Source of the DNA: Akkermansiaceae bacterium
GTDB lineage: Bacteria > Verrucomicrobiota > Verrucomicrobiia > Verrucomicrobiales > Akkermansiaceae
Assembly: GCA_030725745.1 (NCBI GenBank)
Contig: JANRFH010000012.1
Location: forward strand, 41,991 to 105,990
Length of the DNA: 64,000 nt
Reading direction: 5' to 3'
The position numbers were made by a program, and so were the translations under genes. Shown here piece by piece: positions 24,947 to 25,411 of this stretch. The notes under the pieces are model-generated. The model ran no database searches, was not told the origin of the DNA, and worked only from the letters and a program-made list of their open reading frames with translations. The first letter of the stretch is position 1. Every line of letters begins with the position of its first letter.

Positions 24947-25411
24947 TTAACCACGGAGACGCAGAGATCACAGAGGTTTTGTTTCGGGGTAGTCGATGAT
25001 TTTACGGGTGATCCCTTCTTTCAAGAGAGGGACGAAAAAATTGATCATCAGACCCACTCGCTTCCTCTTGAGGCGCATGTAGCTCATTAGCTGTGCGTGG
25101 TGAACCGGCAGCACCGATGTCACAGCTTTCAATTCAACGACAATCTCTGATCCAACAAGCAGATCCATTCGATAAGCTTCCTCATTGATAACCTTACCCT
25201 TGTAGCTGACATAGATAGGAAGTTGTTGGTCTACCGTGAGGCCGCGTAGGCGTAACTCATGCACTAGAGCCACCTCATAAATCTTCTCGAACAATCCTGG
25301 CCCAAGCTCCCTGTGAACTTCCATAGCCGCATCCACAACCGCTCCTGAAAGTTTGTTTAGTTCATCAAGTTCCATAAAAAGCCTCTGTGTTCTCTGCGCC
25401 TCTGTGGTAAA
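24947..25411 (-). mobile_element. Putative GxxExxY-encoding element bracketed by inverted repeats, inserted between metH modules
   Basis: Left TTAACCACGGAGACGCAGAGATCACAGAGG; reverse complement of right end TTTACCACAGAGGCGCAGAGAACACAGAGGC; ORF 24968-25375 fills the interval. Confidence 0.7.
24968..25375 (-). CDS. GxxExxY family protein (PD-(D/E)XK-nuclease-like)
   Basis: GPGLFEKIYEVALVHELRLRGL...LPIYVSYKGKVINEEAYRMDLLVGSEIVVELKAV: GxxExxY-type motif plus D...E.K nuclease-like core. Its stop codon lies inside the flanking repeat. Confidence 0.88.
   Translation of the reverse strand: MELDELNKLSGAVVDAAMEVHRELGPGLFEKIYEVALVHELRLRGLTVDQQLPIYVSYKGKVINEEAYRMDLLVGSEIVVELKAVTSVLPVHHAQLMSYMRLKRKRVGLMINFFVPLLKEGITRKIIDYPETKPL

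What the first reader, a model, noticed from the sequence alone, without database searches (positions are those of the whole stretch)
24947..25411. GxxExxY gene bracketed by inverted repeats looks like a mobile element that split metH
Seen: the 135-aa GxxExxY ORF (24968-25375) is immediately flanked by inverted repeats ([T/A]CCAC[G/A]GAG[A/G]CGCAGAGA[T/A]CACAGAGG). Its stop codon TGA lies within the repeat. The unit sits between the MetH homocysteine module (ends ...APRKVAGR*) and the pterin module (starts [12 protein letters not shown]...GERTNVAG), normally one polypeptide. Known: GxxExxY proteins are an uncharacterised family with a PD-(D/E)XK-like core. Inference: the gene plus inverted repeats forms a transposable or homing-like unit whose mobility protein may be GxxExxY.
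Basis: partly seen in the sequence, partly recalled or inferred. Interest (0 to 1): 0.87.

Follow-up and report, generated by a model that had tools for sequence, protein, structure and literature searches.

The report
Nuclease gene in inverted-repeat mobile element
A tiny nuclease gene of unknown function sits between inverted repeats and splits the methionine-synthase gene; comparison with many genomes shows that this is one member of a very widespread, apparently undescribed family of small mobile DNA elements that insert between genes and have passed between species.

Summary
In detail: a 135-aa GxxExxY gene (24968-25375, -) lies between 27-nt inverted arms (24950-24976 / 25382-25408, 24/27 paired) inside the interdomain linker of metH. 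It is one case of a general pattern. Of 116 GxxExxY genes from related genomes, 96 are bracketed by inverted arms built from ~10-bp tandem units (about 1% of control tiles); so are 47 of 78 from other groups. The unit word follows the protein's clade, not the insertion site. metH is one ORF in 20/20 outgroup genomes but split in all 29 readable genus members, with the element or its remains at the split in most. Three same-site species pairs show elements 99-100% identical inside flanks 80-95% identical, with identity falling close to the arms. There are no target-site duplications. The protein models as a minimal Cas4/lambda-exonuclease-type nuclease under purifying selection. Best reading: a homing-like mobile element moved by its own nuclease, working like RAYT/REP and resembling 23S-rRNA intervening sequences, but a member of neither. 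That the nuclease reads or cuts the arms is inferred. At metH the element is old and site-conserved, not a hyperactive transposon.

The parts
25382..25408 (-). upstream (5') inverted arm, ACCACAGAGGCGCAGAGAACACAGAGG on the - strand; its inner AGAGG is a plausible Shine-Dalgarno for the ORF (inference)
24968..25375 (-). GxxExxY ORF, 135 aa, PD-(D/E)XK of Cas4/lambda-exonuclease type; motifs GxxE30xxY33, D71, E81xK83, Q95xxxY99
24950..24976 (-). downstream (3') inverted arm; contains the ORF's stop codon
25418..26509 (-). MetH-N, homocysteine S-methyltransferase module, 5' half of the interrupted host gene
21515..24928 (-). MetH-C, pterin/B12/activation modules, 3' half of the interrupted host gene
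22025..22693 (-). separate in-frame REP-associated tyrosine transposase (Y1/HUH) insert inside the MetH-C activation domain, polymorphic in the genus
38061..38182 (.). ORF-less hairpin of the GCGAATGaAC unit word (same word as the own-genome carA/purA GxxExxY element), apparently inside a CAGGG...CCCTG-ended repeat of about 38014-38205
55046..55082 (-). single arm-like array of the GAG word (ACCGCAGAGACACAGAGGCCACAGAG)

Best explanation
The unit 24950-25408 is a small mobile element made of one gene and two inverted arms, each arm a row of three or four ~10-bp units. The GxxExxY protein is a minimal Cas4/lambda-exonuclease-type nuclease that (inferred) binds the units of its own arms and makes the break or processes the hairpin that lets the element be copied. 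It spreads mainly in a homing-like way: an allele carrying the element converts the corresponding site of a related genome, with short co-converted flanks (transfer pattern shown, enzymology inferred). Rarely it reaches a new site, usually a gap between co-directional genes, where it is read from the host operon (orientation shown, cause inferred). In an ancestor of this genus one such insertion landed in the MetH linker and split metH (inferred from distribution). ORF-less hairpins with the same arm words descend from such elements (inferred from co-occurrence).
For: 96/116 GxxExxY loci in relatives exceed the 99th percentile of control tiles for flanking inverted arms; 47/78 in other groups against 1/134 shifted tiles. 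Arm similarity tracks protein identity in pairs without flanking-gene homology (Mantel rho 0.18, best of 999 permutations 0.08); at one site, unrelated proteins have background arm similarity (7.5 vs 8.6) and related ones 19.7; on the protein tree the arm word needs 16 changes and the site 38; with one row per site and word, 16 vs shuffled 22.0, 0/200. Islands: L070/L079 98.7% inside 80-81%, L033/L034 99.7% inside 83/91%, L099/L100 100% inside 87/95%, while the typical ORF is 12 points less conserved than its flanks; edges 12-52 bp outside the arms upstream, with a co-conversion tail in the third pair. metH is one ORF in 20/20 outgroups, split in the genus; G020 carries a pheST-clade CCAAG-type element in its metH gap. 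Solo words co-occur with the cognate gene: ACAGGATT 9/9 vs 3/50, p 2e-8; CACTGA p 2e-4. dN/dS mostly 0.03-0.13. Model pLDDT 92, best PDB match Cas4 SSO0001, then lambda exonucleases. Co-directional: 24 of 27 sites downstream.
Against: No cleavage or binding is shown. No near-identical copy at two different sites was seen in the sample, so new-site movement rests on the tree. The oldest sites (metH, pheS/pheT) look largely inherited with losses. Four-helix-bundle genes have the same architecture without a nuclease, so arms in general may not require this nuclease. Some solo hairpins lie inside other repeats with their own terminal repeats and target duplications. Most genomes are draft MAGs.
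Confidence: 0.68

Rival explanations
1. The arms are the mobile part, moved by an unrelated enzyme, and GxxExxY (like the four-helix-bundle protein) is a passenger or maintenance factor.
For: Four-helix-bundle genes sit in arms of the same architecture (26/30) and occupy the same pheS/pheT gap in other genomes; ORF-less hairpins are common; some are inside repeats with outer terminal repeats and 9-10-bp duplications.
Against: Arm word follows the GxxExxY clade across unrelated sites, and the arms of four-helix-bundle genes have another grammar; none of the armed GxxExxY elements scanned has the outer CAGGG/CCCTG ends and there is no clear excess of target duplications.
Confidence: 0.17
2. RNA-level element like the 23S rRNA intervening sequence: the arms pair in the transcript, the stem is cut by RNase III, and the element persists because it is silently removed from mRNA.
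For: Same architecture as the Coxiella IVS, whose 28-bp terminal repeats go with tandem heptamers around an S23 ORF (PMC4990558); strong co-direction with host operons.
Against: Arm mismatches show no excess of sense-strand G-U pairs over antisense ones (85 vs 103, p 0.21), so arms look kept at DNA level; the protein is of a DNA-nuclease type.
Confidence: 0.1
3. Old operon gene with a host function (for example repair or regulation) whose flanking palindromes are terminators or regulators; metH was split independently.
For: Present in the metH gap of 21 of 30 genus loci; purifying selection.
Against: Different GxxExxY clades, four-helix-bundle elements, plain hairpins or nothing occupy the same gap in sister genomes; element islands cross species lines; copy number varies 0-8 per genome.
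Confidence: 0.05

Closest known systems
REP-associated tyrosine transposase (RAYT)/REP system (PMC2817692)
   Same: single gene between two inverted repeats; repeat type specific to the gene's clade; ORF-less copies of the repeat abundant where the cognate gene is present
   Different: enzyme is PD-(D/E)XK of Cas4 type, not Y1/HUH; arms are rows of ~10-bp units, not GTAG-headed palindromes
23S rRNA intervening sequence with S23/four-helix-bundle ORF (Coxiella, PMC4990558)
   Same: about 430-470 bp, ~130-aa ORF, ~27-bp terminal inverted repeats with short tandem units, selfish distribution
   Different: in protein-coding operons rather than rRNA; ORF is a nuclease; no evidence for RNA-level action
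Homing endonuclease genes
   Same: same-site transfer between species with short flanking co-conversion; free-standing and intercistronic
   Different: bounded by inverted arms; not in an intron or intein; recognition site unknown
Cas4 / lambda exonuclease / RecB-type nucleases
   Same: fold and the E...D...ExK...QxxxY motif set (motif set of the family from own knowledge)
   Different: minimal 120-135 aa domain, without the extra domains of those nucleases and with no CRISPR or helicase partner gene next to it

Membership tests
GxxExxY (TIGR04256 / PF13366) | score over the curated cut-off | tested here: met
   133.1 vs 35 bits and 131 vs 22 bits
GxxExxY (TIGR04256 / PF13366) | GxxExxY motif and PD-(D/E)XK catalytic residues | tested here: met
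   invariant G27, E30, Y33, D71, K83, Q95, Y99; E81 invariant among closer relatives
DDE-type insertion sequence | target-site duplication | tested here: not met
   longest direct repeat in flanks 5.0 vs 4.7 for mispaired flanks; at least 8 bp in 3 of 89, 1.05 expected
DDE-type insertion sequence | DDE transposase gene | tested here: not met
   the only ORF is PF13366
RAYT/REP | Y1/HUH transposase between inverted REPs | tested here: not met
   only PF13366/TIGR04256 matches the ORF
RAYT/REP | repeat type specific to the gene's clade and multiplied where the gene is present | tested here: met
   (this is the 'works like' feature)
23S rRNA IVS | location in rRNA with an S23/four-helix-bundle ORF | tested here: not met
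   lies between metH halves; ORF is PF13366
23S rRNA IVS | terminal inverted repeats with short tandem units around a ~130-aa ORF | tested here: met
23S rRNA IVS | RNase III excision of the stem from RNA | not testable with these tools
   only indirect: no sense-strand G-U bias
Homing endonuclease gene | transfer to the same site with co-conversion of flanks | tested here: met
   three same-site pairs; draft genomes
Homing endonuclease gene | cleavage of the empty allele | not testable with these tools
   needs a biochemical assay

The most novel reading that the evidence does not exclude
GxxExxY elements are a new class of autonomous mobile element, spread over many bacterial phyla and some archaea, mobilised solely by a minimal Cas4-like PD-(D/E)XK nuclease that reads its own clade-specific tandem-unit arms. 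Together with four-helix-bundle (IVS-type) elements they form a superfamily of single-gene, inverted-arm, intercistronic selfish elements.
Probability: 0.45. Interest if true: 0.93.

Novelty: new variant of a known kind. Interest (0 to 1): 0.85.

Why it matters
GxxExxY is a common annotated family without a function; the papers held name it only in passing. If it is the mobility nuclease of an inverted-arm element, one unexplained family, the arm-like hairpins seen between genes, and the resemblance to rRNA intervening sequences fall under one mechanism. It would also show how the gene of a core enzyme (methionine synthase) can be split in two by a selfish insertion, and it offers a natural series of nuclease-DNA word pairs with changing specificity.

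Tried and rejected
The repeat finder with 9-nt seeds misses the arms. Defence-system and PDB sequence searches gave nothing useful; no Rfam family. RNA stem: sense-strand G-U bias not found. Target-site duplications and outer terminal repeats around GxxExxY elements: not found. Phage or plasmid carriage: no phage record and 8 plasmid records, all non-mobilizable. Within-element arm identity exceeds that to the nearest ortholog (0.91 vs 0.86), but arms were chosen by that match, so it is only suggestive of concerted evolution. Near-identical hairpins in the own genome were first taken as proof of GxxExxY-driven copying; they lie in repeats with AGGGC...GCCCT or CAGGG...CCCTG ends and 9-10-bp duplications, so that inference was dropped. 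CCAAG word counts separate only weakly (p 0.019). An alignment of 25 diverse proteins was too varied for the collection scan.

Full report
1. Observation. The ORF, the arms and the split metH are as described. The arms are 24950-24976 and 25382-25408, 27 nt each, 24 of 27 paired; shuffled flanks reach at most 18. The ORF is TIGR04256/PF13366. The stop codon is inside the left arm, and the right arm's inner AGAGG sits where a Shine-Dalgarno would be (inference).

2. Is the pairing of arms with GxxExxY general? The window's genome (a 3.4-Mb draft) has seven such genes, and 53 of 59 related genomes have at least one. I took 116 loci and scored the best inverted repeat between the 250 bp on each side: 96 exceed the 99th percentile of tiles from the window, and 91 against 1 of 136 tiles reach 34. 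In 80 loci of named organisms from other groups (Bacteroidota, Cyanobacteria, Planctomycetes, Acidobacteria, Chloroflexota, Proteobacteria, an archaeon and more), 47 of 78 usable ones reach 31 against 1 of 134 shifted tiles; several below the cut still show arms by eye.

3. The arms are rows of ~10-bp units, often opening with AACC[AG]C, but the unit word differs: CACAGAG, CGCCAAG, CACGAAG, GCGAATG, GCAGATG, ACAGGATT, CACTGA and others. Word follows protein, not place. In pairs with no homologous flanking genes, arm similarity rises with protein identity. At one site, unrelated proteins have arms no more alike than background, and related ones do. On the tree the word needs 16 changes and the site 38; after reduction to one row per site and word the clustering persists, 16 changes against 22.0 shuffled, 0 of 200. 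A pheS/pheT-type CCAAG element, with its arms, occupies the metH gap of G020 (L010), and the ACAGGATT clade has the same word at three unrelated sites.

4. Sites. Elements lie between genes, mostly co-directional ones: over 32 independent sites the downstream gene is on the same strand in 24 and opposite in 3, the upstream gene 24 and 8. The pheS/pheT gap is instructive: in the genus it is 6-10 bp when empty (G016, G001), or holds a CCAAG GxxExxY element, a hairpin of another word, a CCAAG element with most of the ORF deleted (G026), or a four-helix-bundle gene with its own arms; in another family it holds an ACAGGATT GxxExxY element.

5. metH. All 20 outgroup genomes of the same order encode metH as one ORF across the linker (...APRxIPxxEPLLRLSG...). 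Of 30 genus loci, 29 show both halves, always separated: 21 of the 30 with a GxxExxY ORF (a few of them decayed), 2 with remnants, 7 without (two of these with arm-like scars). So the split is shared by the genus, the element sits exactly in the former linker, and the split outlives the element. That the insertion caused the split is inference from this distribution.

6. Movement. In 125 same-site pairs the ORF is typically 12 points less identical than its flanks, but three pairs are reversed: L070/L079 98.7% in 80-81% flanks, L033/L034 99.7% in 83/91%, L099/L100 100% in 87/95%. Identity falls 12-52 bp outside the arms upstream and about 30-40 bp outside them downstream, except for a longer high-identity tail downstream in the third pair. 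This is what homing-type conversion between species leaves. There is no clear excess of target duplications and no outer terminal repeat on these elements. No recent identical copy at a second site was seen, so new-site movement rests on the tree.

7. Enzyme. The model (pLDDT 92) matches Cas4 SSO0001 best, then lambda-type exonucleases; the E, D, ExK and QxxxY positions are invariant or nearly so. dN/dS is mostly 0.03-0.13 (one near-identical pair gives 0.47 on few changes, and several dS values are saturated). The protein is therefore kept with an intact nuclease site; its substrate is inferred.

8. Hairpins without ORF. They carry the same words. The ACAGGATT word occurs in 9 of 9 genomes with the cognate gene and 3 of 50 others; the CACTGA word at 20 or more copies in 4 of 4 and 4 of 55; the CCAAG word is weaker. 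In the own genome 13 of 14 GCGAATG words outside the gene are paired hairpins, but the near-identical ones lie inside other repeats with AGGGC- or CAGGG-type ends and 9-10-bp duplications, so their copying is not credited to GxxExxY.

9. Kin. It works like RAYT/REP (PMC2817692) and resembles the Coxiella 23S IVS, whose 28-bp terminal repeats go with tandem heptamers around an S23 ORF (PMC4990558). Four-helix-bundle genes of this order are likewise in arms (26 of 30) but with another grammar such as AGACgcAAGAC. It is a member of neither family: enzyme and location differ. The intergenic TAACTGA repeats of Beggiatoaceae (PMC4679880) may belong here too, untested. In the held papers GxxExxY is named only in passing and the arm words were not found as a described repeat; this library lacks most subscription journals, so prior description elsewhere is not excluded.

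10. Shown: arms, word-protein link, sites, distribution, islands, predicted fold. Inferred: arm binding or cutting by the nuclease, homing as the route, insertion as the cause of the metH split. Main caveats: draft genomes, pseudo-replication only partly removed, and a gene list cut at about 150 of the matches, which weakens the word co-occurrence tests.

Noticed in passing
22025-22693 (-), inside MetH-C 21515-24928: A REP-associated tyrosine transposase domain is inserted in frame in the MetH activation domain (VALSDWVKP | ~222 aa | TDYIGGF), with short inverted repeats at its ends. The same place carries such an insert in 12 of 20 other genus genomes tested and a short loop in 7; insert ends differ between genomes.
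   Followed up: partly
L203-L232 (30 loci of TIGR02436); L179, L186, L196: Four-helix-bundle (S23/IVS-type) genes in Verrucomicrobia also sit in inverted arms of short units, outside rRNA and partly in the same gaps as GxxExxY.
   Followed up: partly
L369, L370, L376, L377, L378; L039, L041; window 38014-38205: Small multi-copy repeats with AGGGCTxCCTCxTTTTG or CAGGG...CCCTG ends and, in several, 9-10-bp target duplications enclose GxxExxY-type hairpins; their mobiliser is unknown.
   Followed up: partly
L045 / L372 (G000:C3:60100): A GCGAATG hairpin is nested inside a CACAGAG hairpin, two arm words in one gap.
   Followed up: no
L010 (G020, metH gap): The CCAAG element's outer ends (TGAAACG...) look like those of the GAG elements at this site, as if exchanged by recombination within or next to the arms.
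   Followed up: no
L326 (G018 metH-C): This MetH-C has about 300 extra residues at another place and no NHVH motif; nature not examined.
   Followed up: no
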